The position numbers were made by a program, and so were the translations under genes. From Acinetobacter equi (GTDB taxonomy: Bacteria > Pseudomonadota > Gammaproteobacteria > Pseudomonadales > Moraxellaceae), in the NCBI RefSeq assembly GCF_001307195.1, contig NZ_CP012808.1:682001-746000 (forward strand): a stretch of DNA of 64,000 nucleotides, in the 5' to 3' direction. The notes under the pieces are model-generated. The model saw nothing but the letters and a program-made list of their open reading frames with translations, ran no database searches and was not told where the DNA came from. Position 1 is the first letter of the stretch. The number at the start of each line of letters is the position of its first letter. This document shows, one piece after another, positions 39,255-64,000 of the stretch.

Positions 39255-41675
39255 TTGAAAATTAAAAAAATTTCAGAGATTAAAAACTTTTCCATTTTTA
39301 AAGATTTTGATTGGGACACTAATTTAACTTATCAAAATAAACAAAGACAGAATGAAGTCTATGATTTTAAGGATATCAATATCCTTTATGGACGTAACTA
39401 TTCTGGAAAAACAAGTCTTTCAAAAATAATTCGCAGTCTTGAGAAAAAACAACTTCCGCTTAAATATGATAATCCTGATTTTAAAATTAAGCTTTCTGAT
39501 GATACTGAGATCACTCAAAATACTTTACAAACTTTTGAACATCCTATTCATGTTTACAATTCAGACTTCGTAAAGGAAAACTTAAAATTTATTCATAATG
39601 AAAATGACAACATTGAGTCATTTTCGGTAACTTTAGGTGGTGACAATCAGCAAATTCTAGAGCAGATTCAAAAATTAAAAGGTGAATTAGGTTCAAATGA
39701 AGAAAATAATAAATCAGGTATCTATCTTGATATTCATAATAAAGAACACCAAGTCAGAAAGGCTAGTGAAAATCACAATGCTAAAAACCGTCATTTGGAA
39801 AATACACTTTCAGATAAAGCGACTCGCGGCTCTGAATCAATAAAGAGTCAACATACTCTATTTGGAGATATTAATTACTCTATAACCAAACTTAGAAATG
39901 ATCTTACCGAAGTTCAAAAATCTAGCTTTCAAGTTTTATCTGAAGATCAAAAAATAGAAAAATTAGCCTTGATAAAACAAACTGAATTACCCACCCCACC
40001 TGAAATTCCTAAATATACTTTAAACTTTTCTTCACTTCTTCAAGCAACAACTGAAACTTTAAAAACCGTTGTTAGCCTTAGTGGAAAAATTGAAGAATTA
40101 ACAAATAACCCCACATTAAACTCATGGGTGCAAACAGGACATCAACTCCACCATGATCGGGACACCTGTGCATTTTGTAATAACAAAATTTCAGAAGAAA
40201 GAGAACAAACCCTGAATCAGCATTTCAATCAAGAATTTCAAATACTTCAAAGCAGAATATCAAAGGGTATTCAACTTTTAGATAAAGAATTAGACAGTGA
40301 AATTTTAAAATTTAATTTAAATATCAATCTCTATTATCAACAATATCACTCTAGGCTCTCAGCATTAAGCTCAAACCTAGACTCTTCATTTAGTAAACAA
40401 AAAGCATCACTTGAACAACTAAAAATTGCACTCGAGCAGAAACAAAATAACCCTTTTATAGAACTAGAATCTAACAACCCGCAAGATTACTCTCTAGAAA
40501 TCACAACTATTCTTGATCAAATTTCTGATATTCGAAATCAGTGCATCCGATTGAATAGTGACTTAAAAACCAAACAGGAAGAAGCTAAAAAAGCTGTACG
40601 CCTTAACCACGTTTATCACTTCTTACAAGATATTAACCACACTCAATTAACTTCTGATATAGAGTTTGCATTGCAAGCTATAGCACCTTTAAAAACAGAA
40701 CTAGCAACGCTAAGAACTCGAAAAGATACACTTCTATCAGATATTGAAACTGAAGAGGCTAAATTAAAATCTGAGGGCGAAGCTTGTAACCGTATTAAAG
40801 AGCTTTTAAATCATGAATTTGGACATTCATCATTAAGTTTAGAACCAATTGAGGTCGATACTATGAATGGAAAGCAGATCAAATTTGAAATACAGCGTAT
40901 TAAAGATGGAAATAAAACTAAAGCTCACAATTTGAGTGAAGGTGAATGTAGCTTAATTTCATTCTGCTATTTCTTAGCTAAAATTCAAGATGATTTAGAC
41001 CACGATAAAAAGCCAATTATTTGGATAGATGATCCAATTTGTAGTCTTGACAACAACCATATATATCTCATTTACTCATTATTAGAGAATTTATGCTTAG
41101 AGAACAATTACAATCAACTATTTATTTCAACTCATAATTTAGATTTTTTGAAATATCTAACTCAACTTACACCTATGGGAAAAACAGCAACTACAATTAA
41201 ACGCGAAAAAGCTTTCTATCAAATCGAGAGAGCTTTCACTTGTTCTATATTAAAAAAGATGCCACTCCATTTACAAGAAAATTCAAGTGAATTCATATAC
41301 CTATTCGATCAGATTTATAAATGTTCCTTAGCAATCGACGTAGATGATTCAAATCATATTTACTTTTATAACTTCGCTAATAATGCTAGAAAATTCCTAG
41401 AAATCTATACTTACTACCTTTTCCCTAATCCTCAATTAAAAGACAGACAAAGACTTCAAAGATTTTGGGGTGATAGACTGCCACGTATTTTTAGTGAACG
41501 CATTAATCATGATGGATCTCACGCAGTGACTATTCTAGAAGGAAAAATAACTTTGCGAGATTTTAGTGAAGTTAATACTAATGCCAAACTTATCTTAAGT
41601 AAGTTAAAGACATCTAATTCTGAGCAGTACAATTGCTTACTTGAGAGTATTGGTATCACGCCTACAACTCAATAA
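39255..41675 (+). CDS. RloC/PrrC-like AAA_13 ATPase, candidate anticodon nuclease
   Basis: 806 residues. Walker A GRNYSGKTS (46-54), long coiled-coil arms (about 130-520) interrupted by a CxxC (C305/C308, DTCAFCNN) that could form a zinc hook, ABC signature LSEGE (560-564), Walker B IIWIDDP (about 588-594) and H-loop FISTHN (H627). The last 180 residues lack ABC motifs but contain ARKFLEIY (R712, E716) and a downstream INHDGSH (H752/H756), which resembles the Arg-x3-Glu...His triad of PrrC/RloC tRNA anticodon nucleases. RloC combines the same zinc hook, ATPase and nuclease. It stands alone between core genes pirin and guaA. ATPase identity is firm; nuclease activity is inferred. Confidence 0.72.
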   Translation: MKIKKISEIKNFSIFKDFDWDTNLTYQNKQRQNEVYDFKDINILYGRNYSGKTSLSKIIRSLEKKQLPLKYDNPDFKIKLSDDTEITQNTLQTFEHPIHVYNSDFVKENLKFIHNENDNIESFSVTLGGDNQQILEQIQKLKGELGSNEENNKSGIYLDIHNKEHQVRKASENHNAKNRHLENTLSDKATRGSESIKSQHTLFGDINYSITKLRNDLTEVQKSSFQVLSEDQKIEKLALIKQTELPTPPEIPKYTLNFSSLLQATTETLKTVVSLSGKIEELTNNPTLNSWVQTGHQLHHDRDTCAFCNNKISEEREQTLNQHFNQEFQILQSRISKGIQLLDKELDSEILKFNLNINLYYQQYHSRLSALSSNLDSSFSKQKASLEQLKIALEQKQNNPFIELESNNPQDYSLEITTILDQISDIRNQCIRLNSDLKTKQEEAKKAVRLNHVYHFLQDINHTQLTSDIEFALQAIAPLKTELATLRTRKDTLLSDIETEEAKLKSEGEACNRIKELLNHEFGHSSLSLEPIEVDTMNGKQIKFEIQRIKDGNKTKAHNLSEGECSLISFCYFLAKIQDDLDHDKKPIIWIDDPICSLDNNHIYLIYSLLENLCLENNYNQLFISTHNLDFLKYLTQLTPMGKTATTIKREKAFYQIERAFTCSILKKMPLHLQENSSEFIYLFDQIYKCSLAIDVDDSNHIYFYNFANNARKFLEIYTYYLFPNPQLKDRQRLQRFWGDRLPRIFSERINHDGSHAVTILEGKITLRDFSEVNTNAKLILSKLKTSNSEQYNCLLESIGITPTTQ

Positions 41676-47115: not shown

Positions 47116-47191
<76 letters not shown>

Positions 47192-47237
47192 AAATCTTTT
47201 TTGTTTAGTTTTTTATAGTAAAAAATTATTCGACCCC

Positions 47238-47313
<76 letters not shown>

Positions 47314-48252: not shown

Positions 48253-49437
48253 ATGGCGGCTATTCGTACTAGATACGGTAAGTTATGTGTTGATTTTCGA
48301 TACTTAAACATCCGTTGTCGTGAAACAACAGCTCTTGAAGATAATGCTCAAAATCGCAAAAAGCTTGAAAAAGCGATTGAGCGAATGGAAGCGGAAATCT
48401 TACTGGGTATTTTTGACTATGCTAAATACTTTCCAAAAAGTTCTCGCTTAAAAGAAATCAAAAATGCAGAAAACAAAGTAAATGAAATCAGCTCTAAAAC
48501 TCCCCTATTTTCCAAGTTCTGTGAAATCTGGTTCACTGATAAAAAAATAGAATGGCGTGCGAGCTACAAGGAGAAAATTCAGATTGTGATCAAAAAGTAC
48601 TTAATCCCTTTTTTTGGCACAATTCCGGTTATTAATATCAAAAAGTCAGACATTCTTGGATTCCGTTCATCCCTCGCCAAAGTGACTCACGGAAAAAACC
48701 AAGAATGCCTTTCACCATCAAGAATCAACCAGATTATGATAGCACTTCGTATGATACTCGATAGTGCTGCAGAACGATATGACTTTGATAACCCTTATAA
48801 GAATATCAAGAACTTAAAGCAAGGAAAGATTGAAGTAACACCTTTTTCATTAAAGGAAGTACATACAATTTTAGCTGCAGTTCGTGATGATTTTAAGCCT
48901 TATTATACTGTTCGATTTTTCACAGGTATGCGCACCAGTGAGATCGATGGCTTGCAATGGAAAAATGTGGACTTACAGCGTCGTGAAATCAATATTAGAG
49001 AAGCGCTAGTGAATGGGGTTCTTGGTGGAACCAAAACTTATGGCTCTGACCGCACAATCCAAATAAATGATCGGGTTTATCAAGCCTTTCTGCAGCAGAA
49101 AAGCTTGAATAATGGTAAATCCAGTTTTGTCTTCTGTAACCGCGATGGTGGACCTCTAGATTATCGTTTAGTGAATAAACGTGTCTGGCATCCCCTACTA
49201 CGCTATTTAGGACTAAAGCCTCGTCGTGCTTATCAAACACGTCATACCGCTGCAACGCTCTGGCTGTCGGCAGGAGAGAATCCTGAATGGATCGCGCGCC
49301 AGCTCGGGCATTCAACGACTGAAATGTTGTTCCGGGTCTATAGCCGTTACATTCCGAATGTTACGCGTCGTGATGGCAGTGCTTTTGAGGCCATGCTAGA
49401 GAGACTAAATACAGAGGAGCTTGCCCATGAACAGTAA
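48253..49437 (+). CDS. Tyrosine-family site-specific integrase
   Basis: 394 residues. An N-terminal Arm/DUF3596-type domain (MAAIRTRYGKLCVDFRYLNIRCRETT region), a core-binding domain (about 85-185) and a C-terminal catalytic domain with R227 (FFTGMRTSEIDGLQW), R330 (QTRHTAATLW), LGH at 351-353 and the nucleophile in VYSRY (Y363). The H of the HxxR box is replaced by Tyr (YQTR), as in several phage integrases. It should catalyse insertion into the neighbouring tRNA-Gly. Confidence 0.92.
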   Translation: MAAIRTRYGKLCVDFRYLNIRCRETTALEDNAQNRKKLEKAIERMEAEILLGIFDYAKYFPKSSRLKEIKNAENKVNEISSKTPLFSKFCEIWFTDKKIEWRASYKEKIQIVIKKYLIPFFGTIPVINIKKSDILGFRSSLAKVTHGKNQECLSPSRINQIMIALRMILDSAAERYDFDNPYKNIKNLKQGKIEVTPFSLKEVHTILAAVRDDFKPYYTVRFFTGMRTSEIDGLQWKNVDLQRREINIREALVNGVLGGTKTYGSDRTIQINDRVYQAFLQQKSLNNGKSSFVFCNRDGGPLDYRLVNKRVWHPLLRYLGLKPRRAYQTRHTAATLWLSAGENPEWIARQLGHSTTEMLFRVYSRYIPNVTRRDGSAFEAMLERLNTEELAHEQ

Positions 49438-49744: not shown

Positions 49745-50305
49745 ATGCATAAAGATATTTCAATTTGGATGCCACTCTATATTGGCGACTTACAGGCGAA
49801 ATTTGCACGAATGACAGCAGAACAAATTGGTGCTGCACTTCTGCTAATGATGGATTTCTGGAAAAATGGTGCCATTCCTCATGACCTAGCTACTGTATGT
49901 AGCATCACGAAATTACCGCAGCACACCAAGGCTAAAACTTTATTGAATACGCTGATGACCCTAGAATTATTTGAAGTCGAATCTGAGCAGATTAATTCAA
50001 ATTTTTTAACCAATTTAAAAAGCCAGGCATTGCAAAATCAGCAAATGAAATCTGATAAAGCTAAAAATGCAGCTCAAGTACGTTGGAATAAATCCACAAG
50101 TAATGCTCAAGCATCTAACAAGCAAATACCCAAAAATGCTCAAGCATTCTCTGAGGATAACCCGAGTATTACTCAAGTTATACTTGAATCATGCCCTTCA
50201 TCTTCATCTTCATCTTCATCTTCATCTTCATCTTCATCTTCATCTTCATCTTCAAATTTTGAAGAAAAAAATGAGGATTTTTCAGAAAATTCCAAATGGA
50301 TTTAG
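49745..50305 (+). CDS. DUF1376 (YdaU-like) phage replication-type protein
   Basis: 186 residues. The first 90 match DUF1376: DISIWMPLYIGDLQAKFARMTAEQIGAALLLMMDFW. The rest is a low-complexity tail with 18-19 Ser encoded by a hexanucleotide repeat. In phages and satellites DUF1376 proteins sit just before a DnaC-like loader, as here, and probably bind the origin. An AAAGGTG precedes the ATG. Confidence 0.8.
   Translation: MHKDISIWMPLYIGDLQAKFARMTAEQIGAALLLMMDFWKNGAIPHDLATVCSITKLPQHTKAKTLLNTLMTLELFEVESEQINSNFLTNLKSQALQNQQMKSDKAKNAAQVRWNKSTSNAQASNKQIPKNAQAFSEDNPSITQVILESCPSSSSSSSSSSSSSSSSSSSNFEEKNEDFSENSKWI
50196..50253 (+). repeat. Hexanucleotide microsatellite (CTTCAT)n
   Basis: About ten uninterrupted copies of CTTCAT encoding the poly-Ser tail of the DUF1376 protein. 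Unit changes keep the frame and vary tail length. Confidence 0.9.
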
Positions 50306-51255: not shown

Positions 51256-52377
51256 ATGGACGGAAATTGGTTCGAATTCATAGCAATACAAGGCTTACAG
51301 GCTCGTAAAGCTTTTTACATCATTATGGTTCCTCTCAAAGTTGTACCTAAATTTTTTAAATTTGATGATGACTCATTACCACCTGCAATGCGTGCACAAC
51401 GCACATTAAACAAAACAAGAATTCCTCAAATAAGCAGATATATAATTGATAATCCTGATGAATATATACTGTCATCTCTCTGTGCATGCGTAGATGGAGA
51501 AGTTGTATTTGAGCCCAATGATCTTTCTAATAATTTGGGTAAGTTAAAAATTTCAATGGATGCTACTGTCCTAATTAATGATGGCCAACATAGAAGAGCA
51601 GCTATAGAAGATGCTCTCAAACATCGTCCATATCTAGGAAATGAAACTATTTCTGTTGTGGTTTATGCTGATCAGGGCTTAAAACGTTCTCAGCAAATGT
51701 TTGCTGACCTAAACATGCATGCAGTAAAGCCAGCTCAATCAATTAAATTACTTTTTAACCATAGAGATGAACAATCACATATTACTAAAGCAGTAATTGA
51801 AAATATTGAACTATTCCGCAAATTTACTGACTTTGAAAAGTCTAGTTTATCTAACAGAACAACTAATTTATTTACATTTAGCTCCTTACATCAAGCAACT
51901 AAACAACTATTAAACGATTTACCACAAGAAGCTACTCATGAAGAAAAGATTATAATTGCGACTAAATTCTGGAGCTGTGTAATTCAATATATTCCAGGGT
52001 GGCTAAATCTTTTAGAAGGTAAAGTTACGGCAGCTGAGTTAAGGAATAGTTATATCCATGCTCATGGCATTGCAATCCAAGCTCTAGGTAAATTAGGCAA
52101 TATTTTACTCATACAGTATTCAGAAAATTGGGAGTCTAAACTCAGTAAATTGATACATATTGAGTGGTCTCGAAACAACTTAAAAGTCTGGAATAACCGC
52201 GCGTTAGTTGCAGGTAAAATCAATAAGTCCCGCAATAATTTGGTGCTTGTGACCAACTATATTCAAAAAGTTTTAGGCATTCCATTGAATGACGAATCAC
52301 AACGAGTTGAAGATCTACACAGCAACTCTATTCAAGTTGAACAAAGTACCGTAACAAAAATCGAGGAGATGGTCTAA
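51256..52377 (+). CDS. dndB: DNA phosphorothioation-associated protein DndB (DGQHR domain)
   Basis: 373 residues. The family-defining INDGQHRR lies at 107-114, and the N-terminal IQGLQARKAFYIIMVPLKVVPKFFKF plus RAQRTLNKTRIPQISRY are DndB hallmarks. In characterised systems DndB binds DNA and negatively regulates dnd transcription and modification. It abuts dndC with no gap (TAA-ATG). No clear Shine-Dalgarno upstream, but the N-terminal family motif begins within the first 15 residues, supporting this start. Confidence 0.93.
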   Translation: MDGNWFEFIAIQGLQARKAFYIIMVPLKVVPKFFKFDDDSLPPAMRAQRTLNKTRIPQISRYIIDNPDEYILSSLCACVDGEVVFEPNDLSNNLGKLKISMDATVLINDGQHRRAAIEDALKHRPYLGNETISVVVYADQGLKRSQQMFADLNMHAVKPAQSIKLLFNHRDEQSHITKAVIENIELFRKFTDFEKSSLSNRTTNLFTFSSLHQATKQLLNDLPQEATHEEKIIIATKFWSCVIQYIPGWLNLLEGKVTAAELRNSYIHAHGIAIQALGKLGNILLIQYSENWESKLSKLIHIEWSRNNLKVWNNRALVAGKINKSRNNLVLVTNYIQKVLGIPLNDESQRVEDLHSNSIQVEQSTVTKIEEMV

Positions 52378-53871
52378 ATGAGTTTTTTTGAGACCAACTC
52401 ACTAAAAGATGTTCATGCATCAATCCAAGAAGTCTATCTGTCTGATAAGCGACCATGGGTTGTTGGATATTCAGGCGGTAAGGACTCTACTTGTGCCTTA
52501 CAACTAGTATGGAATGCCCTAGCTTTATTACCAGCAGAACGAAGACAAAAGCCGGTATATGTTATTAGTTCAGATACTCTGGTTGAAACCCCTATTATCG
52601 TTCGCTATATCGATAAAAATCTTGAAAACATCCAGAAAAAATCTGATGAACAAGGCATGCCTTTTATTGTTCAAAAGGTAAGTCCAAGAGTCGAGCGATC
52701 ATTCTGGGTCAACTTAATAGGTCGTGGTTATCCAGCACCAAGTAATAAATTCCGCTGGTGTACAGAACGTTTAAAAATCGAGCCTGCGAATGATTTTATT
52801 ACACAACGAGTCGCTGAATTTGGTGAAGTTGTAGTTGTTCTAGGCGTACGTTCCGCTGAAAGTGCAACGCGTGCACAGGTTATTGCGATGCACAAAATTA
52901 AAGGCACCAAACTAGCACGCCATTCGTCACTTTTAAATGCTTTTGTGTTCGCGCCAATTGAAGCCTTTACTACGGATGATGTTTGGAATTATTTACTACA
53001 GAATAAATCACCATGGAATAATGACAATCGCGAGTTAGTCACCATGTATCGAAATGCCCAAGCGGGTGAGTGCCCTCTTGTTGTTGATAAAACAACACCT
53101 AGTTGTGGTAACTCACGTTTTGGTTGCTGGGTATGTACTGTTGTTCAACAAGATAAGTCGATGGAAGCAATGGTTGAGTCTGGAGAAGAATGGCTTGAAC
53201 CATTATTAGAATACCGAGACCTTTTGTCTTCAACTCAAAATCCGGAAAAGAAATTCATCTATCGTGAATTTAAACGCCGTAATGGTCAAGTTTCATTTAA
53301 CCATGCAAATGGCAAGCTTGTTCCTGGTCCATATAAATTAGATTTCCGTAAAGAGTTACTTGGCAAATTGTTGGAAATTCAGAAACAAGTACAAGCCGAA
53401 GCACCAATTGGTGAAGCACCTGTTCTGATTCATCCAGCGGAATTACATGAAATTCGTCGTTTATGGCGTTCTGAAAGCGGTGATTGGGCTGATTCCGTCC
53501 CTCAAATTGTAAAAAATATTTTAGGGATCGATTTAGATTGGGAAATTGAAGATAGTGTTCTCTATAACACTCAGGACTTTTCTTTACTCGATCGTATTTG
53601 TAAAGAGCATGAACTTCCTACTGAGCTAATGGTTAAACTTATTGGTGTGGAAAAAGCTTCTCATGGTCTAAAGCGACGTCATAACATACATAGTCAACTC
53701 AGCAAAGTACTTAATGAAGAATGGCGTGATTTAAAAACTATTCTTGCTGATCATGGCTCAGATCAAACAATTGATGACATCATTGAAATAGAAGATGAAG
53801 AATCATCTTTTGCTGAAGAAGTTTCTTCAGGTCAACTAGATTTACTAAATAACGCTGGAGCTAATCCATGA
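52378..53871 (+). CDS. dndC: DNA sulfur modification protein DndC (PAPS reductase-like, Fe-S)
   Basis: 497 residues. ATP-pyrophosphatase P-loop YSGGKDST (31-38), FRWCTERLK (C128), and a Cys cluster C232, C243, C250, C253 (ECPL, SCGNSRFGCWVC), consistent with the 4Fe-4S cluster reported for DndC. It activates the DNA backbone and helps place sulfur. A GAGGAG lies upstream inside dndB; the stop overlaps dndD (ATGA). Confidence 0.95.
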   Translation: MSFFETNSLKDVHASIQEVYLSDKRPWVVGYSGGKDSTCALQLVWNALALLPAERRQKPVYVISSDTLVETPIIVRYIDKNLENIQKKSDEQGMPFIVQKVSPRVERSFWVNLIGRGYPAPSNKFRWCTERLKIEPANDFITQRVAEFGEVVVVLGVRSAESATRAQVIAMHKIKGTKLARHSSLLNAFVFAPIEAFTTDDVWNYLLQNKSPWNNDNRELVTMYRNAQAGECPLVVDKTTPSCGNSRFGCWVCTVVQQDKSMEAMVESGEEWLEPLLEYRDLLSSTQNPEKKFIYREFKRRNGQVSFNHANGKLVPGPYKLDFRKELLGKLLEIQKQVQAEAPIGEAPVLIHPAELHEIRRLWRSESGDWADSVPQIVKNILGIDLDWEIEDSVLYNTQDFSLLDRICKEHELPTELMVKLIGVEKASHGLKRRHNIHSQLSKVLNEEWRDLKTILADHGSDQTIDDIIEIEDEESSFAEEVSSGQLDLLNNAGANP

Positions 53872-55874
53872 TTATCAAATCGTTAGTTTTAGATAATGTT
53901 GGTTTATATAGTCAGCGTACTGAATTCTCTTTAGAACCTAAAAAATCATCCTCTACCAATCGCCCTATTATTCTAATTGGTGGTCGTAATGGTGCTGGTA
54001 AAACAACATTCTTAGATTCTGTTCGATTAGCACTTTATGGTAAACGTGCTTTGGGCCTTGGGATCAGCACAAAAGAATATCACCAATATTTATTAAGTAA
54101 GATAAATCAAAATCATCTTGAGCGTTCTTCAAGTGTGGAACTTACATTTGTTTATACAGAAGGTAGTATTCCCGCTGAGTTCAAAGTAAGTCGCTCTTGG
54201 TCTTTATCATCAGAAGGACAAATTTATGAGAATTTAGATCTTCAAAAGAATGGTTCAACTGTTACGTCTGTACCAAAACAAGAATGGGAAAACTTCCTCT
54301 TAGAACTGATCCCAATCGGCGTATCTCAGCTATTTTTCTTCGATGGTGAAAAAATTCAAGATATTGCTGAAGATAACAATGCTTCTTTATCAGATGCAAT
54401 TAAAAATCTTCTCGGAATCGACTTGATTGAAAAGTTACGTCTAGATCTACACGCATATTTGAGTCGTAATAAATCCGATGATGCTGGACAAAATGATGTA
54501 GAGCTTCTAACGGAGCAGTTGAATGATCTTAAGTCTCAAGAAAGTAAAATCAATAACGAATATGCCCAGCTTAAATTCGAACATCAGGGTTTACTGAAAA
54601 GTATTGAGCAAAAAAAACTTCGCTTTGTTTCTGAAGGTGGCGCAATTGCATTGCAATATGATCAACTTAAAATAAAACTCTCTCAGCTAAACAAAGATAT
54701 TAATACCTGCAAACAAGAATTAGTCAGCTTAGCAAATGGTCTTCTCCCATTCCTCTTTGCACCAAAACTGATTTCAAAATTTACTAAGCATCTAGAACGT
54801 TCTTCGGCTGATCAATCATCAGATCAAAAAGTTGTTGAGCAAGCTCTAAACTCATTCCAAACTAGTTCTGTTCAGAAACCAGAGCTTTGGAAAGATGAAC
54901 ATTGGCAAAACTTAAATGAATTTCTTGTGAGCTATTTTAATGCAGAACCACAACATAGCTCACATATCGCATTTGGGGAATTAACAGAATCACAACAAAC
55001 CCTAGCTAAATTATTAAGTTTAGATGCAGAAGTGAGAAAACAAGTTAAATCACTCTTTGAGCGTTTTACCTACTTGAACCAAGAAAAAGAAGCAACAGAG
55101 TTTTCTATTGCTCGTGCTGAAAATGCTGAAGACTCTAATGCTTACTTAGATGAGTTACTATACAAAGAGCGTAAACTTGGTGAGCTTGATTTAATTCTTA
55201 ATAAGAAGGAAGAAGAAGTTCGTAAAATGAGTTGGGATGTTGTGACAGCAGAACGAAACTTAAAAGCTGCTAGCGAAGCAGTTGCCGAGTTCGCTCTACA
55301 AAATCACAAAAATTCTTTAGCCGCTAAAGGAATTAAAGCTCTCATTGAATTTGAGACTGCTCTTCTTGAACAAAAAATCAATCAAGTTCGTCATAACTTT
55401 GTTGAAATTTTCAACTCATTGCTACGTAAGCGTAATTTTATTACTGATTTACATATTGATCCAAAAAGCTTTAATACTCAGTTAATTAAAACCAATGGTA
55501 AAGTTGTAGAAAAGTCTGCTTTATCTGCTGGTGAAAAGCAGATCTATGCGATTGCGATGTTATGGTCTTTAGCTAAAACAAGTGGTCGTCATTTGCCAAT
55601 GATTGTAGATACTCCACTTGGCCGTCTAGACCGCGAACACCGCGATAACCTGATGAAGTTCTACTTCCCTCACGTAAGTCATCAAGTCATTATTCTTTCA
55701 ACTGATACAGAAATTGATGACTTATATGTTAATCAATTAAATGAATTTATCTCTGAAAGTTACTTGCTTGAATATAATCACGAGTTAGGTTCTACTCAAG
55801 CATTACCAGGTTACTTTACTGATCTGAAACGCACCAATACGACGGAGAAGAGAATTGCATTACAGCAAGCTTAA
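53868..55874 (+). CDS. dndD: DNA sulfur modification protein DndD (SMC-like ATPase)
   Basis: 668 residues. N-terminal GGRNGAGKTT (38-47), long coiled-coil (about 195-290 and 410-500), C-terminal LSAGEKQIYAIAML signature and MIVDTPLGRLD Walker B with a downstream LSTDTEI. Rad50/SMC-type ATPase that is thought to introduce or process nicks for sulfur insertion. GGAG seven bases before ATG. Confidence 0.95.
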   Translation: MIIKSLVLDNVGLYSQRTEFSLEPKKSSSTNRPIILIGGRNGAGKTTFLDSVRLALYGKRALGLGISTKEYHQYLLSKINQNHLERSSSVELTFVYTEGSIPAEFKVSRSWSLSSEGQIYENLDLQKNGSTVTSVPKQEWENFLLELIPIGVSQLFFFDGEKIQDIAEDNNASLSDAIKNLLGIDLIEKLRLDLHAYLSRNKSDDAGQNDVELLTEQLNDLKSQESKINNEYAQLKFEHQGLLKSIEQKKLRFVSEGGAIALQYDQLKIKLSQLNKDINTCKQELVSLANGLLPFLFAPKLISKFTKHLERSSADQSSDQKVVEQALNSFQTSSVQKPELWKDEHWQNLNEFLVSYFNAEPQHSSHIAFGELTESQQTLAKLLSLDAEVRKQVKSLFERFTYLNQEKEATEFSIARAENAEDSNAYLDELLYKERKLGELDLILNKKEEEVRKMSWDVVTAERNLKAASEAVAEFALQNHKNSLAAKGIKALIEFETALLEQKINQVRHNFVEIFNSLLRKRNFITDLHIDPKSFNTQLIKTNGKVVEKSALSAGEKQIYAIAMLWSLAKTSGRHLPMIVDTPLGRLDREHRDNLMKFYFPHVSHQVIILSTDTEIDDLYVNQLNEFISESYLLEYNHELGSTQALPGYFTDLKRTNTTEKRIALQQA

Positions 55875-56214
55875 AATTTCATCTGAGGCAACTACTCGTC
55901 TTCGTATGTTAAAACAACGGACTGGTTTAACACCAAACTTGCTTTGCCGTATTGCCCTGATGATGTCTTTAGAAGAAGGCCCTTTAGGTAATATTCCATT
56001 ACCGAATGAAGATGGTTCTGAATTCAATGCCTACACCCTTACAGGTGAAAATACAGATCTATTCTTATCACTTCTTAGATATGTAGAAGACCACCAAGAA
56101 GAGCCTCTAGAAAACAAGATACTTCTTGATCGTATGCGTGGGCATATTCACAGAGGTGTTGGTGCTATGTCTGTTCGCTATAAGTCTTCTGAAAGTTTAA
56201 TTGCTAATATATAA
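55855..56214 (+). CDS. dndE: DNA sulfur modification protein DndE
   Basis: 119 residues. Starts at TTG 55855 with GGAG exactly seven bases upstream, overlapping dndD by 20 bp; no ATG or GTG is available. Pattern LKISSEATTRLRMLKQRTGLTPNLLCRIALMMSL is the DndE N-terminus, and HIHRGVGAMS is the conserved C-terminal motif. Small DNA-binding tetramer thought to bind nicked DNA. Confidence 0.93.
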   Translation: MHYSKLKISSEATTRLRMLKQRTGLTPNLLCRIALMMSLEEGPLGNIPLPNEDGSEFNAYTLTGENTDLFLSLLRYVEDHQEEPLENKILLDRMRGHIHRGVGAMSVRYKSSESLIANI

Positions 56215-56216
56215 AT

Positions 56217-56248
56217 TAAAAGGCAAGCCTATTGGCTTGCCTTTTAAT
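56217..56248. terminator. Bidirectional terminator between dndE and the restriction operon
   Basis: Perfect AAAGGCAAGCC / GGCTTGCCTTT stem with a TATT loop, between the convergent ends of the dnd and dpt operons. Confidence 0.85.
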
Positions 56249-56261
56249 AACTTTATAAACT

Positions 56262-57329
56262 CTATTGTTCCAAAGCAGTTTTTAATTTAGCAATTGCACC
56301 TGCTCTATGTTTAGCAATAATTTCTCCACCTTTATATATATTTTCAGCAAATAATTCAGATGTAAATCTTAAATTTATCAATGGCAACTTTTCTTGCAAT
56401 TTATCCAACTGATGATCTTTCAAATACAAGCTGTATATTTCAGCTAAAATCTCTAAACCAATATGTCTCATGAATATCATTTTCTGAATATCACGCAAAT
56501 CTTTTGTTAATTCTGTATTCGTGAAAGATTGTTCGATCTCTGGAAAAAGATCCATTAAAAAATTTAAAAAACCAATTTGAACTTTATACAAACTCTCTTC
56601 AGTAGTAAGTTTCAAATTCTTTTTAAATACTTTAGCTATAGCAACCAATGTTAATAAGCTTGTGAAAAATTCAGGATCATTAACTGTAGTAGTTTTTGAA
56701 AGGATAATTTTAGTATATGGTAATCTATCAAAATCGCCATAAATTTTCCTCGCTATAATATTTTCAATATCTTCCTCATCAATAATTGCTAATTCTCCAG
56801 GACTTACCTTTTGAGCTTTTTTATTAATATCCGAAAATAATTTTCTAGTTCTTTTTTTACCACTAACAGAATCCACATGTTGTACTAATATTATAGAAAA
56901 CTGATCTTTAAAATTAGGGTCATCTAAAACTTGTCTTTTTATAGCCTCTACACGATGTTGCCCATCAATCGCAAATAATTTCTCAGCACCAGTTAGCTCC
57001 AATAATCCCATTGAATCTTCTAAGTATTCTCTGCGTTCATCAGTAAGAATATCTACATGCCCAAGATCCAGTGGATACCAATTAGGGGTATCATCAAACA
57101 CTCCAACAATAATTGAGTTAAAGAAACGATCTTCGTTATTTCTAATATATTCAGTGATTTTTTTTACATTTGGAGTGATTTCTCGTTGTAAATAATCATC
57201 TAAAGTCTGATTCTCTCTTATATCTTTAGAACGCATTATACGATCTGAAATTTCAGATGCAGACATAAGAATAGGGTAATAGACCCAATTACCCATTACA
57301 GCTCGAAGTGCTGGAAAAATATTACTCAT
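56262..57329 (-). CDS. Second DGQHR (DndB-like) protein in the restriction operon
   Basis: 355 residues. Contains IDGQHRVEAI (121-130) but shares little visible sequence with the dndB product outside that block; no DndB-type N-terminal motif. Central segment RTRKLFSDINKKAQKVSPGELAII is typical of the wider DGQHR family. Last gene of the leftward operon, 22 bp after a GIY-YIG-like gene. DGQHR proteins bind DNA and may be regulators or sensors of modification; here the role is unknown, and its place with nuclease genes rather than dnd genes is unusual. Confidence 0.85.
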   Translation of the reverse strand: MSNIFPALRAVMGNWVYYPILMSASEISDRIMRSKDIRENQTLDDYLQREITPNVKKITEYIRNNEDRFFNSIIVGVFDDTPNWYPLDLGHVDILTDERREYLEDSMGLLELTGAEKLFAIDGQHRVEAIKRQVLDDPNFKDQFSIILVQHVDSVSGKKRTRKLFSDINKKAQKVSPGELAIIDEEDIENIIARKIYGDFDRLPYTKIILSKTTTVNDPEFFTSLLTLVAIAKVFKKNLKLTTEESLYKVQIGFLNFLMDLFPEIEQSFTNTELTKDLRDIQKMIFMRHIGLEILAEIYSLYLKDHQLDKLQEKLPLINLRFTSELFAENIYKGGEIIAKHRAGAIAKLKTALEQ

Positions 57330-57351
57330 AATTCTATTTCAAAACCTAATT

Positions 57352-57909
57352 TTAGAATGCATTACGTGCACGCTTAATATTTACTGGAAAGTCCCTATCA
57401 TTCGCCCAGGGTAAATAGAAACCATGTAAATATTCTTCAATCTGAGATAATTCACTTGTATCATCAAATTCACAGTAATGAATCGTTACATCTTGATGAT
57501 ACATCGCTAAGGCAGTTCTCACCTTATCTCTTCTTTCGATACCAGATATCTGAATATAGTTTCTAAGTCTTTCTCTTAATGGATTTGTTGAACCACGCTC
57601 ACCTGCTATTCCAACATAAAAAACACACTCAGGTAACCGATTAACACGTTCTCTAGGTCCAACTGAAAAAAGATAAATTCCACATTCAGTGGCACGTGTT
57701 CTATCTTCCGACAAATATTTATCTAATTCTGTATACTTGACCGACACCCAATTAAAGTTATATCTAGATAATATTGCTCCATATGTGTCCCAATATCTTG
57801 GAGCAATTGCTATCTTTTGAATGGAGCTTTTCAAATAGAATTTATCAGATTGATCTTGATACTCCTGATATTCAGGCGATAGAAAGTCTAAAATATCTCT
57901 AGTTGCCAC
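57352..57909 (-). CDS. GIY-YIG nuclease-like protein
   Basis: 185 residues starting at GTG (AAGGA upstream). GIY at 77-79 (CGIYLFSV), YVG at 98-100 (VFYVGIAG), an Arg-containing helix LRERLRNY (111-118) and a candidate metal-binding Glu in QIEEYLH (158/159), in the order of the GIY-YIG fold. Residues 1-70 are an extra N-terminal region. The start overlaps the 111-aa gene by 11 bp, so it is translationally coupled. Catalytic competence is inferred from motif spacing. Confidence 0.75.
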   Translation of the reverse strand: MATRDILDFLSPEYQEYQDQSDKFYLKSSIQKIAIAPRYWDTYGAILSRYNFNWVSVKYTELDKYLSEDRTRATECGIYLFSVGPRERVNRLPECVFYVGIAGERGSTNPLRERLRNYIQISGIERRDKVRTALAMYHQDVTIHYCEFDDTSELSQIEEYLHGFYLPWANDRDFPVNIKRARNAF

Positions 57910-58234
57910 TCTTAATCCTTATCTTTTCAAACACACAAGCTAAAGCACACAGTGGTACTAAAAGCTCAAGATCTTTTCTAACAAAAGTCGCTTCTACAAA
58001 TACACCTTTGTCAGATTCATAAAGCTCAGTAATACGCTTCACTCCACGCTTATGAAGCTCTTTTCCTAATCTGCCTAAATTAGAATAATGCTTAAAATAT
58101 TCTTCTAGTTCATAACCATGCTGCGTGGAATCATACCATTCACGTAATGTCACAATTTCTGCAGCTTTTTTAGCTGCAGAAATTTGCTCTTTCCGTAGTT
58201 GAACTTCGCTTTTTGAAGATTTAGAATTACTCAT
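57899..58234 (-). CDS. Unknown small protein downstream of dptH
   Basis: 111 residues, Lys/Glu-rich with a Ser/Lys-rich N-terminus and predicted helices (ISAAKKAAEIVTLREW, LGRLGKELHKRGVKRITEL), ending VPLCALACVFEKIRI. I recognise no family. ATG 13 bp after the dptH stop with AAGGGG Shine-Dalgarno, so it is cotranscribed. It overlaps the GIY-YIG gene by 11 bp. Confidence 0.75.
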   Translation of the reverse strand: MSNSKSSKSEVQLRKEQISAAKKAAEIVTLREWYDSTQHGYELEEYFKHYSNLGRLGKELHKRGVKRITELYESDKGVFVEATFVRKDLELLVPLCALACVFEKIRIKSGN

Positions 58235-58246
58235 TACTAATTCCCC

Positions 58247-59398
58247 TTAAGAAACTTCAAATTGTTGACACAGCTCCCAGAAGGCTTTGTCTTTCATCTT
58301 CACTAGTTTCTTATGACCATCAATATACAAGCTATAATGTTTATCAAGTTTACGAACCGTTTCCATTAAGTGTTCTTGCTCAGATTTATCATCCACATTA
58401 AATATTGCTTTGATATCACCGTTGCTAATCTGCGCAACGCGATGGATTACCCAAGTCAAGATATAGGCAGAGTAGTTATTTTCCCCAGTCTTAAAGTGCG
58501 TAATATCTTGTGTAGATAAGACCACGCCTACCCCATACTCACGTCCTTCCTTAAGAACCTTGCGTAAACTTGGGAAATCTTGCGACATAAAATTATCAGC
58601 TTCATCAACAAGAATCATCTTTGTTATTTGTCGATAGTCACCTTGAACTTGTGGTTTACCTTGTTTCTGCATCTGTGAATAAAACAGATCCAAAGTTAGA
58701 GCAACCACAAGATTTTGAACTTGTGGTGGATACCCTGCTAATTCGATAACCAAAACACCATCTAACAAATCATACAAACTTGAACAAAGATGATTATCTG
58801 ACTCAAAAATTTCTAATTCATTTAAGCTTTCAAGAGCAGCGTACAAAGAATCAATTGATGGATCAGTCGCTTCGAATAAATTCCAAATATCTTTAATTGT
58901 TGGCGCTGGTAAATGCCATGTAGATGCATCGGCCCTATCAATTCCAGCTTGCTCATAAGCATCTAGAACCAATTTACGTAATGTTGCTTGCTGTTTAACA
59001 CCTAGTCCAAATGCCTTAGCCATCGTGTCAGAAAAACCACGAGCAGTATGCACAGGCAACATTGGTGTATCACCAAATAAACTCAATGGATTATAAGGTA
59101 ACTTATAAAGTTTATGTCTCTTAACAGCATTGATTTCTACAAACTCATCATCTACATAATCTGATTTGTAGTCGAAAATCAACATACCGATTGGCGCTGA
59201 ATTGACATTAGATTCTTGGTTCTGCATCAATTGCGTAATGAGCGACTTGGTAAATTGCGTCTTACCAGTACCCATCGTACCAATAATGCCTGTATTGGTA
59301 TTCATGAACTTAGCTGTATTCGTAGGTTCCCAATACAATTGCTCATGTGTTACAGCATTAGAACCAAAATGAATCTGTAGAGGATTTATGCTTTTCGG
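58247..59398 (-). pseudogene. dptH: dptH, 3' part: HerA/FtsK-like ATPase module
   Basis: In-frame from the end of the 9-bp repeat array (PKSINPLQIHFGSNAV...) to the stop at 58247, about 384 residues. Walker A IGTMGTGKTQFTKSL, Walker B KMILVDEADNFMSQ, and the ISNGDIKAIFNVDD / LSTQDITHF segments are the ATPase/translocase of DptH. It is the C-terminal third of the restriction protein, separated from the N-terminal part only because the repeat array shifts frame by +1 (63680 vs 59338 phases differ by one). A TTG at 59338 could act as a separate start, but the strongly conserved residues upstream of it argue for one original protein. Confidence 0.85.
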
Positions 59399-59402
59399 TA
59401 CA

Positions 59403-59838
59403 GGATCTACAGGATCTACAGGATCTACAGGATCTACAGGATCTACAGGATCTACAGGATCTACAGGATCTACAGGATCTACAGATCTACAGGATCTACA
59501 GGATCTACAGGATCTACAGGATCTACAGGATCTACAGGATCTACAGGATCTACAGGATCTACAGGATCTACAGGATCTACAGGATCTACAGGATCTACAG
59601 GATCTACAGGATCTACAGGATCTACAGGATCTACAGGATCTACAGGATCTACAGGATCTACAGGATCTACAGGATCTACAGGATCTACAGGATCTACAGG
59701 ATCTACAGGATCTACAGGATAAGATCTACAGGATCTACAGGATCTACAGGATCTACAGGATCTACAGGATCTACAGGATCTACAGGATCTACAGGATCTA
59801 CAGGATCTACAGGATCTACAGGATCTACAGGATCTACA
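59403..59838 (-). repeat. 48-unit 9-bp VNTR in dptH, with two frame-breaking units
   Basis: Units of GGATCTACA (coding strand GTAGATCCT, Val-Asp-Pro). From low to high coordinates: 9 perfect units, one 8-bp unit (59484-59491, one G lost), 25 perfect units, one 14-bp unit (59717-59730, five bases gained), 12 perfect units. Net +4 bp puts the two halves of dptH in different frames. No spacers, so not CRISPR. Confidence 0.97.
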
Positions 59839-62800
59839 CCAAGGTCAATCGTAAAATAGTCTGTTTTTCCATTTAAAATAAAATGATCCGGAATATTAAA
59901 TAAACTTCTACTATCTACTTGATCAAGTAAAACTTTTAATGGCGTAGAAATAAATTTATTTTGACAAGCTCCAGGGAGTTTAATTACAAGAATATCTTCT
60001 TCCAAACCAAAACTTTCTAAGAAGAACGTATCACTTTCAATAAAAGCTAATACAAACCCTTTTGGATAATTTTGGATATTAGCTAACTGATAATTTCCTC
60101 CCAACCACCACTCTCGATTTTGAAGCAACTGATCAAAGTAATTATCAGGATAGGTTTGGTAAAGCTGATACTTCTCAATCTGCATCATAATTTGTCGAAT
60201 GAATAAACTTCTATAAATATGTCCTACTAAATCCTGACGACCGAATAAGCAAGTTTCTAAATATTTTTTTAACTTTTGTGCCTGAAGAATCCCTTTATCA
60301 TGTTTTTGTTTTTGACCAACTTTTACTTCTAACGGTAGTAAATACATCTGTTGGTCTTTAAAACCAACAAATAGAACATCATCCGAAATAACTCCATACT
60401 TTTTACCTTGGCAATAAGTACTAAAGTCAGATTCACTCATTTTTAAACCAATATTACCGGATACACGAATCATTTCAGCAACACTGAGTGGAACCCAAGT
60501 AATATCACTATTGTATAGAAATGTATTCACATATTTATAAGCAGCAATAATGCTTTTTTTCTCTCGACGATCTTTGTCTTGAAGCGTCAGCATTTTTAAT
60601 AGCCACTCACCATTAAAGGCATTAAACTCATCAATTCGTCCTGCTTGACCTTGACTTAGAATTTGGTCATAAAGATCTCGGCGCTTAGTTACCGTGATAG
60701 CATCATAATGTGCAGAATTTGTGTAATTATCAGAATAATGGATGAGTACAACATCCTGTTGTGTTTTAAAGAAATCTAAAGTGACTTTAGGATCAATGAT
60801 TACTGTCCACAAGCTATCCTCATAGGCACGATCAAGTAGCCTTTGTAGCTGATTTGAAACTTTTAAGGATAAACCATTAGACTCATAAAAATTCTGATTT
60901 TTCCATGCAGCATGACTCAAGGCACTATATCGCTGAACAATTTGAAGTAATGGTTTATCACATTCAATTCCTTTTAAGCCAGCAGTAGTAAAGTACGTAT
61001 CTTGCTGGTGATAAGAAGTCTCACCAGCCAATAAGCCATTACATGCTATCCCCGTTTTTTCTGCTTTTAAATCCACGTTAGCAACTTCAACAGGTGTATT
61101 ATTTCGAACAAATGTCAGATGTGCATACTTAAAGTTATCTTCATCATTAATTTCAAATTTACTATATGTAATACGTCTACGAATAAGATCTGCAATTTGA
61201 TCTACACTATTATCTGACAAAGTTAGCTTACACAGTTGTTTCAGCTTCATTTGACTAACAGTATCTGCTACTTCATCAAAATATGTTGTAGTTAATTTTT
61301 CATCATAAAGATTAATGTGAATATTAGGTACTTCTTGAGGTTTAAGCTTCTGAACAAACCCAACCAAACCTAAAAACAACTCCTCATTAGATCCATTATT
61401 TATAGAATTTATTAATAAAGTGTCTCTTTCACCCTGATTAAATAAAATCTTAAAAGCTTCTACAAATTCAGCTGTTTTTTGTCGAACTAAGGGCCTGATA
61501 TAATTTAATTGCGTTTGTTTCTGTGGAATGATCTGAAGCCACATCGGATGCTCAACAACAGCTTGACTATAACTAAATTCATACTCAGGATGCCAATTAA
61601 AAGGAATTAATCCTTCTGCACTTAAACGCCGTAGCGTTGTATTATGTAAGGTTTTAAACGCTGCTGTAGAGTCATCTAAACATTCATTGACCAAATTCAA
61701 AAAATACGAAAGATTCAATGGGTGAAATAGCGTGATATATTCCTTTCTATCTAATACACAGAACCCTAAATTCACGAGAGTCTTTTCCCCTTGTGATAGC
61801 ATACGTTCAGTAGGAATCTCATGAATGAGCTTTACATATTCTGTAACTACCCGATTTACAATCGATCTTAATTCTGCCCCCCATGAAACTAAACTTAAAG
61901 CTGTATTTTTATTTTTCAGATAATCATAAAGCTGCGTATAAGCAGTATAAAGTTTAGGATAAAGTACTGCTAAATCCTCAATTAGAATTTTACTACCTCT
62001 AACAGTTTCTGTAGAAAGCATTTTGTTAGAAATAAATTCCATTTCTAACTCAAGTAACTTCTTATATTCATTTTTAGATTTATACTCTCGACCTAAGAAG
62101 GAAATTCTTGAGTTTTTAGGGTTATATACTCCAAACAATTGATCATCGAAGAAATACTGGTAGGATTCTAAATTAAAGATTAGTGGTAAATTTAAGCTTG
62201 ATACAGAGAGAATACCCTGTATTTCAAAGGTTAAATTATTTTGACCTTTATTTAATACGAAATTAACTTGTTCCTCTGTATTTAAGAGCCTATCAAAATC
62301 TACTGTTCCAAATTGATTTGTATCTACACTTTCTCCAGATTTAGATAAAGTATAAATTGTAGTAATTGAGGAATCAAAAATAAACTCTGATTGGTCTGTT
62401 TCAAGAATAATAAATTCTTTATTAGGTACCAATAAAAACTTATCTTCAAATGAACTCACGGGGAAAACTTTTTCTGGGATCAGTAACACTCTAAACTTGA
62501 AACACTCTTTTGGCTTTGATCTCTTAATTTCAAAATTTAGATATTTAGGTATACCATCAAATTCTGTTTCTAAACTTAAGATTGTTTTTTTATTAGAGCG
62601 GTTATTAATTTTAAAATTTAATTGTTTCTTAAATTTATTTGAGATTTTTATTTCATCTTCAGAAAGTTGGCCTTTTACGAATACAACATCCAAGCTAATC
62701 ATGGACTGATCTGGAGTCACTTCTAGAATCAAATGATGATCACGACTAGAAGAACTCCCTTTTTGAGAAATAGCCCCCTTGGTACGATGATATTGTTTTT

Positions 62801-63680
62801 TAGCAGAGGTAGACAACTCAGAAAATTCTATCAGATCTACAGAATTTTTCTCTCGCTCTTGCTGACATGCACCAAAATCTAAAGTTTTTCGCCATGACTC
62901 TAAATCATCATTTGAGAAAAAATTATCAATAAACTTTTCACTAAAATCCAAATCGACTAGTTTTTCAACATACTCAGTTGGAAATTGCTCAATAATATAC
63001 TCAATATCTTCTTTGAGCCGCTTATTCTCATCTAGCCTTTTTTCAATTTGATTAATATTAGCTTGACTCCAACTTTGCAAAGCAGAGTCATTCAGATATC
63101 CAAGTTCATTGAACTCTATTTTTCCATCGTACACAGCATTGAACAATTCTCTAAAGCCAAACATTGTGGCGCCATCAGCACAAATTAACTCAAACTGATG
63201 ATTTAGTAGTTGTTTAGAAATTTCATTATCTTTGAAAGAGCTCTGATCAATAAAATTCAGTAGGGCTTCATAAATAGCTCTAGGATTCCAAATGTTGTCA
63301 GTCAAAGTTAAATCTTTAGATGAATTATTTAAAGTATCTAGAGATGAATTATGTATTATAAGTAGAATAGAGTCCTTAAAATTTCCTATTTGGCTTGAAA
63401 CATGATCTCTCAAATAAGAAATATAATTTTCTGAATATCCAGAATCACTATCTGAATGAAGTACTGGAATCACTCTACATCCATTTACAATGAAATACTG
63501 AATCTTTTCATTGTGTAAATAGAATGATGATTCTGATGTACGACTAAAAGCTTGGAAAAGTTTTAGACTATTCTCATCATCTGGTGATTTAAAGTGGAGT
63601 TTTTCACCAATTCTTAAGTGATTTTTTGCCCAGTCAAAAAATAATTCAACCAAAAAATCTTCATATTGTTTTTTTGACAT
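59712..63680 (-). pseudogene. dptH: dptH, 5' part: N-terminal region of the DNA phosphorothioation restriction protein
   Basis: 1,322 residues from ATG 63680 (MSKKQYEDFLVEL; GGGG eight bases upstream), overlapping dptG by 20 bp. It ends in twelve Val-Asp-Pro units and a frameshifted DLIL-stop. A PD-(D/E)XK-like motif appears near residue 1,100-1,120 (ISDDVLFV, then LPLEVKVGQ), a plausible nuclease. Together with the ATPase part about 1,770 residues would result, close to known DptH. In PT systems DptFGH restricts unmodified DNA and here would need this joined protein. The start at 63701 (GTG) is a less likely alternative. Confidence 0.85.
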
Positions 63681-64000
63681 AAATTGCATCCCCACTATCA
63701 CTCATTTTTTCAACATTACCCAAACGCTCATAAAAACTGACTAAAGCTTTTCTACTTTCTTTATCAAAGAAAATTCCTCGTAGTTCTAATCCTTTAATAA
63801 CCTCATACAAGCGTAATTTCTCTCTTTCACCAATCACTAAATTTGTTAATAACAATAAATATTCTTGAGTGAGTACAAATACTGTACCTGCACTTCCTCG
63901 AGTCTGTGTAAAAGGCTTTAAGATAATATTTTTAATTGTGCGTACTACATTTGAATTCCGACTTGCCCTAGTTTCACCTTTCTCAAATTGAGCTTTATAT
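63661..64000 (-). CDS. dptG: DptG, C-terminal part (runs off window)
   Basis: The open frame continues past the window edge: YKAQFEKGETRASRNSNVV at 63999-63943, then LTNLVIGEREKLRLYEVIKGLELRG and the end DAIYVKKTI. This is the C-terminus of the restriction subunit DptG, immediately upstream of dptH as expected in dptFGH. dptF should lie beyond position 64000. Partial at the 5' end. Confidence 0.8.
   Translation of the reverse strand, partial: YKAQFEKGETRASRNSNVVRTIKNIILKPFTQTRGSAGTVFVLTQEYLLLLTNLVIGEREKLRLYEVIKGLELRGIFFDKESRKALVSFYERLGNVEKMSDSGDAIYVKKTI

What the first reader, a model, noticed from the sequence alone, without database searches (positions are those of the whole stretch)
56262..58234. 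Three extra genes appended to a Dnd restriction operon: unknown 111-aa protein, GIY-YIG nuclease-like protein, second DGQHR protein
Canonical Dnd restriction is DptF-DptG-DptH (DndFGH). Here dptG-dptH are followed, with 13 bp and then 11-bp overlap and 22 bp, by three same-strand genes, so they belong to the same transcript and are translationally coupled. One has GIY, YVG and Arg/Glu residues in GIY-YIG order. Another carries the DGQHR block like DndB but otherwise looks different. A nuclease plus a DGQHR DNA-binding protein suggests a second effector arm that reads phosphorothioate state, or an autoregulator of restriction. I know of no description of this set; that is a limit of memory, not a search.
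Basis: partly seen in the sequence, partly recalled or inferred. Interest (0 to 1): 0.8.

Follow-up and report, generated by a model that had tools for sequence, protein, structure and literature searches.

The report
GIY-YIG nuclease plus DndB-like accessory cassette
Next to a bacterial DNA-sulfur defence system sits a two-gene add-on, a probable DNA-cutting enzyme and a DndB-like partner, that also appears beside such systems in distant bacteria and may be a second, separately moved cutting arm.

Summary
Behind dptFGH, same strand, lie a 111-aa gene (p111), a GIY-YIG gene (giy) and a second DGQHR gene (dndB2). They are not one unit: p111 follows dptH in 4 other Acinetobacter genomes without giy, and giy-dndB2 occurs without p111. 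I read giy-dndB2 in 8 distinct loci; 7 hold phosphorothioate (PT) modification genes, Dnd or Ssp; the eighth, at a contig end, shows weaker signs. In 4 of 6 other records searched neither DptH nor SspH matches. giy keeps the GIY-YIG catalytic positions and aligns with UvrC-type domains; no structure could be modelled. giy-linked DGQHR proteins form a clade apart from DndB and from a third clade tied mainly to membrane-type proteins; one relative on a viral contig has no giy. The slot between dptH and dndE holds five kinds of content in six complete Acinetobacter loci. Best reading: a split, portable effector that works like DndI (ParB-like NTPase plus nuclease); no activity is shown. New variant of a known kind.

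The parts
57352..57909 (-). giy: 185-aa GIY-YIG nuclease-like protein, first gene of the cassette
   Evidence: G77, Y79, Y98, G100, R114, Y118, E158 and P167 in 18 of 18 rows of A2, N170 in 16 of 18; profile-profile alignment with UvrC-type GIY-YIG domains; Pfam PF01541 below its cut-off
56262..57329 (-). dndB2: 355-aa DGQHR protein, second gene of the cassette
   Evidence: Pfam DndB E 2.6e-27; TIGR03187 86.4 bits, cut-off 58.85, and TIGR03233 (DndB equivalog) 53.1 bits, cut-off 328; DGQHR and the F and N of FxxxN in 43 of 43 rows, QR in 42 with 1 gap
57899..58234 (-). p111: 111-aa protein of unknown fold that follows dptH
   Evidence: No Pfam, PADLOC or NCBIfam match at E<=1; directly behind dptH in the 5 of 175 genus genomes that carry it
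58247..59338 (-). dptH, HerA/FtsK ATPase part, out of frame with the N part
   Evidence: PADLOC DndH PDLC02685 positions 1322-1678, E 2e-215
59399..59838 (.). 9-bp tandem repeat, about 49 copies, in the linker of dptH; two irregular unit spacings (23 and 17 bases) change the reading frame
59712..63701 (-). dptH, N part, up to the repeat
   Evidence: TIGR03237 1175.6 bits, model positions 2-1256
63661..63999 (-). dptG, cut by the window end (the whole gene and dptF lie beyond the window)
   Evidence: whole genes in L040, PADLOC DndG and DndF
56215..56248 (.). 15-pair terminator-like hairpin between dndE and dndB2
51256..52377 (+). dndB (canonical DndB, 'DndB1')
   Evidence: TIGR03233 455.5 bits, cut-off 328
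52378..53871 (+). dndC
   Evidence: TIGR03183 571.6 bits
53868..55874 (+). dndD
   Evidence: TIGR03185 498.3 bits
55855..56214 (+). dndE
   Evidence: TIGR03184 100.3 bits

Best explanation
giy-dndB2 is a portable two-gene effector cassette of phosphorothioate systems. It works like DndI or SspE split in two: DndB2 is a ParB/sulfiredoxin-type NTPase that senses DNA and its PT state, and the GIY-YIG protein is the nuclease it holds back on PT-marked self DNA and releases on unmarked invader DNA. It rides behind dptFGH here as a second arm, but can serve Dnd or Ssp modification modules without DptH or SspH beside them. p111 belongs to DptH, not to the cassette. Shown here: linkage, gene order, signature residues, partner-related clades. 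Inferred: nuclease activity, NTP use, PT sensing, complex formation.
For: (1) Of 8 distinct giy-dndB2 loci read, 7 hold PT modification genes: window (Dnd, DptFGH), Methylomonas L003 (Dnd, Dpt), Sphingobacteriia MAG L004 (dndC, dndD, a DndE-HerA fusion), Roseobacter L024 (Ssp-type; SspB and SspD confirmed by PADLOC), Rhizobium L030 (Ssp-type by annotation, SspFGH by PADLOC), Rhizobium L031 (dndBCDE plus desulfurase by annotation), Salmonella SARB27 L033 (dndBCDE by annotation plus a DndI-like 594-aa protein). (2) The eighth, G934, was found by the DndB2 profile alone in a sample of 398 phylum genomes and has giy directly upstream (profile E 7.9e-48) and a DndI-like protein nearby. (3) giy is upstream of dndB2 on the same strand in 8 of 8; gaps -13, -1, -4, -1, -1, 22 and 135 (L033, by its annotation) in the seven, and the ORFs overlap in G934. 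(4) In plasmids the 5 records with DndB2 are the same 5 with giy; in the genus each was found only in the window's genome (1 of 175 and 1 of 173). (5) In 4 of the 6 other records searched neither TIGR03237 nor the SspH model matches. (6) DGQHR tree: DndB1, giy-linked and third group separate. (7) giy and DndB2 pairwise distances correlate, r 0.93 over 10 pairs, 0 of 20,000 permutations. (8) DndI precedent (PMC11662687, passages).
Against: No activity, binding or PT dependence was tested. A giy-clade-like DGQHR protein (39% to the Roseobacter one) on a viral contig, L074, has no giy in the 13 kb read, and of the query proteins only DndB/DGQHR ones matched there, so DndB2-type proteins exist without giy and, as far as the 13 kb show, outside PT loci. 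The protein search gave 422 DndB2 relatives (E<=1e-10) but 16 giy relatives, and three contig lengths (30755, 468930, 3553) are shared by p111 and DndB2 relatives but by no giy relative; this listing shows only the longest contig, so it does not settle absence. DndB itself is a transcriptional regulator, so DndB2 may be one. In the 6 closest pairs r is only 0.66. Dnd and Ssp marks differ, so the pair would have to read something common or have changed specificity. Less diverse giy profiles reach only 30.5 and 31.2 over 47 columns against UvrC. N170 is S in 2 of 18 (A2) and 3 of 12 (A4) rows. The tree warns of long branches. L033 was labelled 'other' in the tree and relabelled after I read its sequence; a profile without L033 then scored its neighbour E 2e-34, while of the 13 other proteins scanned 10 were listed at E 0.22 or worse and 3 not listed.
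Confidence: 0.5

Rival explanations
1. Suicide backup: giy is a standalone nuclease that kills the cell when the main restriction system fails, and DndB2 keeps it silent, without reading PT marks.
For: Rakesh et al. 2024 place URI (GIY-YIG) nucleases at the boundaries of Dnd loci and propose this role for standalone nucleases (PMC10853773, section 17). The slot is filled elsewhere by other partners, for example small proteins with 3 to 6 hydrophobic segments, which would fit abortive effectors.
Against: The pair is a tight operon with a ParB-like protein, as in DndI, where the sensor governs self/non-self choice. It is found where neither DptH nor SspH matches, so it may be the main arm there.
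Confidence: 0.22
2. Regulator reading: DndB2 is a second DndB-type repressor that tunes the restriction operon, and giy is a passenger or minor accessory.
For: DndB binds its own promoter and limits dndCDE expression in Salmonella (PMC4507180, passages). A DndB2-type protein occurs without giy on a viral contig.
Against: DndB2 is the last gene of the operon in the window. In Roseobacter it follows the modification genes rather than a restriction operon. In the Salmonella study, deletion of dndB did not significantly change DndFGHI. DndB2 does not reach the DndB equivalog score, and its clade follows its partner.
Confidence: 0.15
3. Direct accessory of DptH: giy and DndB2 join the DptH HerA translocase as an extra nuclease.
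For: In Methylomonas and the Sphingobacteriia MAG the pair follows a HerA/FtsK protein directly, and in the window with only p111 between.
Against: In Roseobacter, Rhizobium NXC14 and Salmonella SARB27 the gene directly ahead of the pair is no HerA/FtsK protein by its annotation. In the Rhizobium pTi plasmid the pair stands upstream of sspF.
Confidence: 0.1

Closest known systems
DndI (IscS-DndBCDE-DndI, Salmonella Cerro 87; PMC11662687, abstract and passages read)
   Same: ParB-like domain with a DGQ-R motif plus a nuclease, encoded beside dnd genes and co-transcribed with dndFGH; a PT-guarded second arm
   Different: DndI is one polypeptide, DUF262 plus HNH. Here there are two genes, PF14072-type DGQHR plus GIY-YIG, found with Ssp too. 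Salmonella SARB27 carries both kinds side by side.
SspE (PADLOC models; described in PMC11662687)
   Same: ParB-like NTPase coupled to a nuclease in a PT system
   Different: Single protein with an HNH nuclease; giy and DndB2 gave no PADLOC SspE match at E<=1
DndB (TIGR03233; PMC4507180, passages read)
   Same: DGQHR, QR and FxxxN motifs; Pfam PF14072
   Different: Separate clade, 19% identical to the window's DndB, far below the equivalog cut-off, paired with giy
URI/GIY-YIG nucleases at the boundaries of Dnd loci (Rakesh et al. 2024, PMC10853773; abstract, sections 17, 21, 22, 24 and passages read)
   Same: GIY-YIG class nuclease beside dnd genes
   Different: In the text read, no DGQHR partner, no cassette and no Ssp linkage is described for them; figures and dataset S1 were not available to me
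UvrC N-terminal GIY-YIG domain
   Same: Order and identity of catalytic positions
   Different: giy has an N-terminal extension of about 70 aa and an insertion between YIG and Arg; 21-22% identity over the aligned columns

Membership tests
GIY-YIG nuclease superfamily | GIY and YIG motifs, Arg, Glu and Asn in order (motif list recalled; positions checked against UvrC) | tested here: met
   G77, Y79, Y98, G100, R114, E158 in 18 of 18 rows; N170 in 16 of 18; aligned with UvrC
GIY-YIG nuclease superfamily | Recognition by family profiles | tested here: inconclusive
   Pfam 16.8 bits against a cut-off of 22.6; 5 of 18 rows match PF01541, best E 0.0075. Profile-profile score 39.0 (48.8 with L033); 0 of 200 shuffles reach 39, top shuffle 23.1; reversed profile 27.2; less diverse profiles 30.5 and 31.2. 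No PDB sequence below E 0.7
GIY-YIG nuclease superfamily | Fold and active-site superposition | not testable with these tools
   Structure prediction switched off
DGQHR domain family (TIGR03187 / PF14072) | Score over cut-off, DGQHR motif | tested here: met
   86.4 against 58.85 bits; 96.2 against 29.1 bits; DGQHR in 43 of 43 rows
DndB (TIGR03233) | Equivalog score | tested here: not met
   53.1 against 328 bits; the canonical DndB in the window scores 455.5
DndI / SspE | DUF262 (GmrSD_N) and HNH (GmrSD_C) domains in one protein | tested here: not met
   No PF03235 or PF07510 match in the three proteins; the Salmonella 594-aa protein shows both
DndI / SspE | PT-responsive NTPase that controls a nuclease | not testable with these tools
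   Needs biochemistry
DptFGH restriction module | dptF, dptG and dptH present and open | tested here: not met
   dptF and dptG open; dptH in two frames. A sequencing or assembly error in the repeat is not excluded

The most novel reading that the evidence does not exclude
PT systems carry an exchangeable effector slot. Each effector comes with its own clade of ParB-like DGQHR or DUF262 sensor: GIY-YIG nuclease with DndB2, small membrane protein with a third DGQHR clade, HNH fused to DUF262 in DndI, AAA ATPase with DUF262. giy-DndB2 would then be a new split PT-reading restriction effector that works with both Dnd and Ssp marks, and the membrane type a PT-controlled abortive effector.
Probability: 0.4. 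Interest if true: 0.77.

Novelty: new variant of a known kind. Interest (0 to 1): 0.62.

Why it matters
PMC10853773 argues that nucleases other than DndFGH may be the true restriction parts of many PT systems. A two-gene cassette that recurs in two phyla and beside both Dnd and Ssp modules gives a small, testable candidate. The partner-related DGQHR clades suggest that DndB-like proteins may be general sensors for interchangeable effectors rather than only repressors.

Tried and rejected
Trio as one unit: rejected, because p111 and giy-dndB2 occur apart. DptH-only accessory: lowered by loci without a DptH or SspH match. Phage or viral spread of giy: no relative in viral contigs nor, with the window protein, in phages or plasmids; the more distant plasmid copies were found only through DndB2 and the Roseobacter protein, and the Salmonella copy through DndB2 in the phage collection, in a record that is a bacterial contig. 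Strict pairing of DndB2 with giy: not upheld, see the viral contig. Identity of p111: Pfam scan of 42 members gave only scattered hits, best E 0.015, PDB sequences none below E 0.6; unresolved. PDB relatives of DndB2 by sequence: none below E 0.6. Wide sampling for more giy loci: 1 of 348 in the order of the MAG, the MAG itself. DptH: 1 of 369 in the class sample, the window's own genome. giy-dndB2 of Salmonella in E. coli: no blastn match. The UvrC reference set came from the 18 loci L041-L058: L056 (the window's own giy) was left out and L041, L042 and L057 did not fit my motif expression, leaving 14. The reversed profile scored 27.2, above every shuffle, so scores near 27 mean little.

Full report
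Observation. The window lies in a 3.05-Mb single-contig genome; I take it for Acinetobacter from the names of the closest proteins. dndBCDE (+, 51256-56214) faces dptFGH and three more genes on the minus strand. A terminator-like hairpin at 56215-56248 separates dndE from dndB2 and no minus-strand promoter-like site was found ahead of the trio, which fits, but does not prove, one transcript with dptH.

The N part ends at the repeat and the HerA/FtsK part continues in another frame. The repeat has 46 exact 9-base units; the spacing is 9 except for one of 23 and one of 17, and each of the three stretches has its open Asp-Pro-Val reading in a different frame. The five other complete Acinetobacter DptH proteins fetched carry an in-frame repeat at the same linker, of 6 or 9 bases (Glu-Pro or Glu-Ala-Thr units), and are open through it; Aliivibrio has a 6-base repeat in its dptH and Methylomonas none that the scan listed. 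Whether the break is real or an assembly error cannot be told here.

giy. PF01541 matches below its cut-off. In the 18 rows of A2 the GIY, YIG, Arg, Tyr, Glu and Pro positions never vary (middle letters of the two motifs aside), and Asn varies in 2. A profile of 12 diverse members aligned with 14 GIY-YIG domains taken from the same and related genomes (mostly UvrC-like by length) over 83 columns, score 39.0; 0 of 200 column shuffles reached it (best 23.1), the reversed profile gave 27.2, the DndB2 and p111 profiles 11.0 and 8.6, and the less diverse giy profiles A1 and A2 30.5 and 31.2 over 47 columns. Adding the Salmonella member gave 48.8 and probability 94. The last motif, Glu, then Pro, then Asn, lines up with UvrC in the alignment. 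No fold could be modelled.

dndB2. It is a DGQHR-domain protein but not a DndB equivalog. QR, DGQHR and FxxxN, named as the domain's motifs in PMC4619093 (passages), are conserved. A tree of 25 proteins separates DndB1 (8 rows), a clade of 11 and a clade of 6. Ten of the 11 were labelled giy-linked beforehand; the eleventh, from Salmonella SARB27, was labelled 'other', and its 226-aa neighbour then proved to be a giy relative by a profile that did not contain it (E 2e-34). Four of the giy labels rest on proteins paired with giy proteins by equal longest-contig length (three) or adjacent coordinates (one), not on fetched DNA. Of the clade of 6, five have a small neighbour with 3 to 6 hydrophobic segments and one (L037, a long branch) a 307-aa neighbour without any.

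Context. giy searches: 1 of 175 genomes of the genus; 2 loci in the 84,980-species collection by patterns; none in viral contigs or phages; in plasmids 5 records by way of DndB2 and the Roseobacter giy, of which I fetched 3; in the other 2, both Rhizobium, the match coordinates place giy next to DndB2. The Salmonella locus came from the phage collection. The eighth, G934, lies at a contig end; the 9.8 kb held has giy, the start of dndB2, a DndI-like protein (27% to the Salmonella one, E 5e-81), a protein weakly like DndD (E 6e-5) and a piece that by eye looks like a cysteine desulfurase. TIGR03237 matches 1 of the 6 other records searched (Methylomonas) and SspH 1 of 6 (Rhizobium pTi), leaving 4 without either; for three of those four only one replicon or contig was searched, not the whole genome. 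p111 was not found in L003, L004, L024, L030, L031 or L033 (profile E<=0.1: only the two controls with p111).

Searching from the DndB2 side without reference to giy: plasmids 5 of 5 records have giy; the phylum sample gave 1 genome besides the window's, with giy; viral contigs gave 1 locus, L074, without giy in 13 kb, next to what look by eye like phage genes.

The slot. dptH was found in 7 of 175 genomes of the genus (6 over the family's cut-off). p111 is in 5 of 175, each directly behind dptH. Between dptH and dndE the seven hold: p111 and giy-dndB2 (window); p111, a GHKL ATPase (PF13589) and a PF20553 protein; p111, DGQHR and a 6-segment protein; p111, DGQHR and a 3-segment protein; p111, a DndB-like and a 307-aa protein; ORFs of 260 and 86 aa and an AIPR protein, no p111; and one locus where dptH and dndC are both cut short and adjoin. 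In three of them (L035, L036, L037) the DGQHR gene and its neighbour stand on the dnd strand, not behind dptH. In E. coli, 201 of 5426 genomes match the HerA part of dptH. Three slot types match 19, 12 and 123 genomes (the third covers 80% of the query in 109). I did not check that each lies beside dptH or that the sets do not overlap; the 10 rows listed for each of the first two types show dptH under the match. Other fetched slots: Aliivibrio and Pseudoalteromonas, membrane-type protein plus DGQHR; Massilia, ORFs of 80 and 441 aa.

Mechanism. DndI, co-transcribed with dndFGH, is a ParB-like NTPase fused to an HNH nickase; PT raises its ATPase and is thought to free it from self DNA (PMC11662687, passages). 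giy-dndB2 has the same two parts as separate genes with another nuclease. I therefore give about one half to a split PT-reading effector, and less to a suicide backup, a regulator, or a DptH accessory. All activity steps are inference.

Literature. PMC10853773 (abstract, sections 17, 21, 22, 24 and passages) names URI (GIY-YIG) nucleases at Dnd boundaries and DndE-HerA fusions; it is the closest prior statement I found. PMC4373003 (passages) notes 1 to 3 hypothetical proteins between dptH and dnd. Passages were also read in PMC4507180, PMC4619093 and PMC12707154. Searches for GIY-YIG with phosphorothioat plus DndF or ParB, for DndB with GIY-YIG, for DGQHR, for SspFGH with phosphorothioat, for DndI with phosphorothioat, and, from 2023, for two of phosphorothioation, DndFGH and 'second dndB' gave no listing or passage that I saw describing the giy-DGQHR pair; the other listed papers were seen only as search listings, and supplements could not be read.

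Noticed in passing
window 59399-59838: dptH is interrupted by about 49 copies of a 9-bp repeat whose unit spacing breaks twice, putting the N part and the HerA part in different frames; the five other complete Acinetobacter DptH linkers fetched also carry in-frame repeats (EP or EAT units) of differing length, which suggests a length-variable tether.
   Followed up: partly
L004:8298-9860: DndE-like part fused to a HerA/FtsK ATPase in a Sphingobacteriia MAG, directly ahead of giy-dndB2; such fusions are mentioned in PMC10853773.
   Followed up: partly
L020:9206-11109, L027:7079-8772, L032:9093-11017, L035:7571-9598, L036:9793-11573: A second cassette type: small protein with 3 to 6 hydrophobic segments next to a DGQHR protein of a third clade, between dptH and dndE.
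   Followed up: partly
L074:5971-7269: A DGQHR protein close to the giy-linked ones on a viral contig, without giy, followed by ORFs of 102 and 813 aa.
   Followed up: partly
L039:3113-5624: A dptH truncated at 696 aa adjoins a truncated dndC, as if the segment between the convergent operons had been deleted.
   Followed up: no
L033:9182-12881: Salmonella SARB27 carries a giy relative, a DGQHR protein and a DndI-like protein together beside dnd genes, with no TIGR03237 or SspH match in that contig.
   Followed up: partly
window 39255-41675: 806-aa protein matching PADLOC candidate PDC-S06 (E 9.7e-264), left of the dnd region.
   Followed up: no
window 47116-47313 and 48253-49437: Two tRNA-Gly genes followed by a 394-aa ORF that by eye looks like an integrase (not searched), left of the dnd genes, as expected of a genomic island.
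   Followed up: no
window 28080-28146, 29350-29384, 50196-50254: Further perfect short tandem repeats (9, 6 and 6 bp units); the last lies inside an ORF.
   Followed up: no
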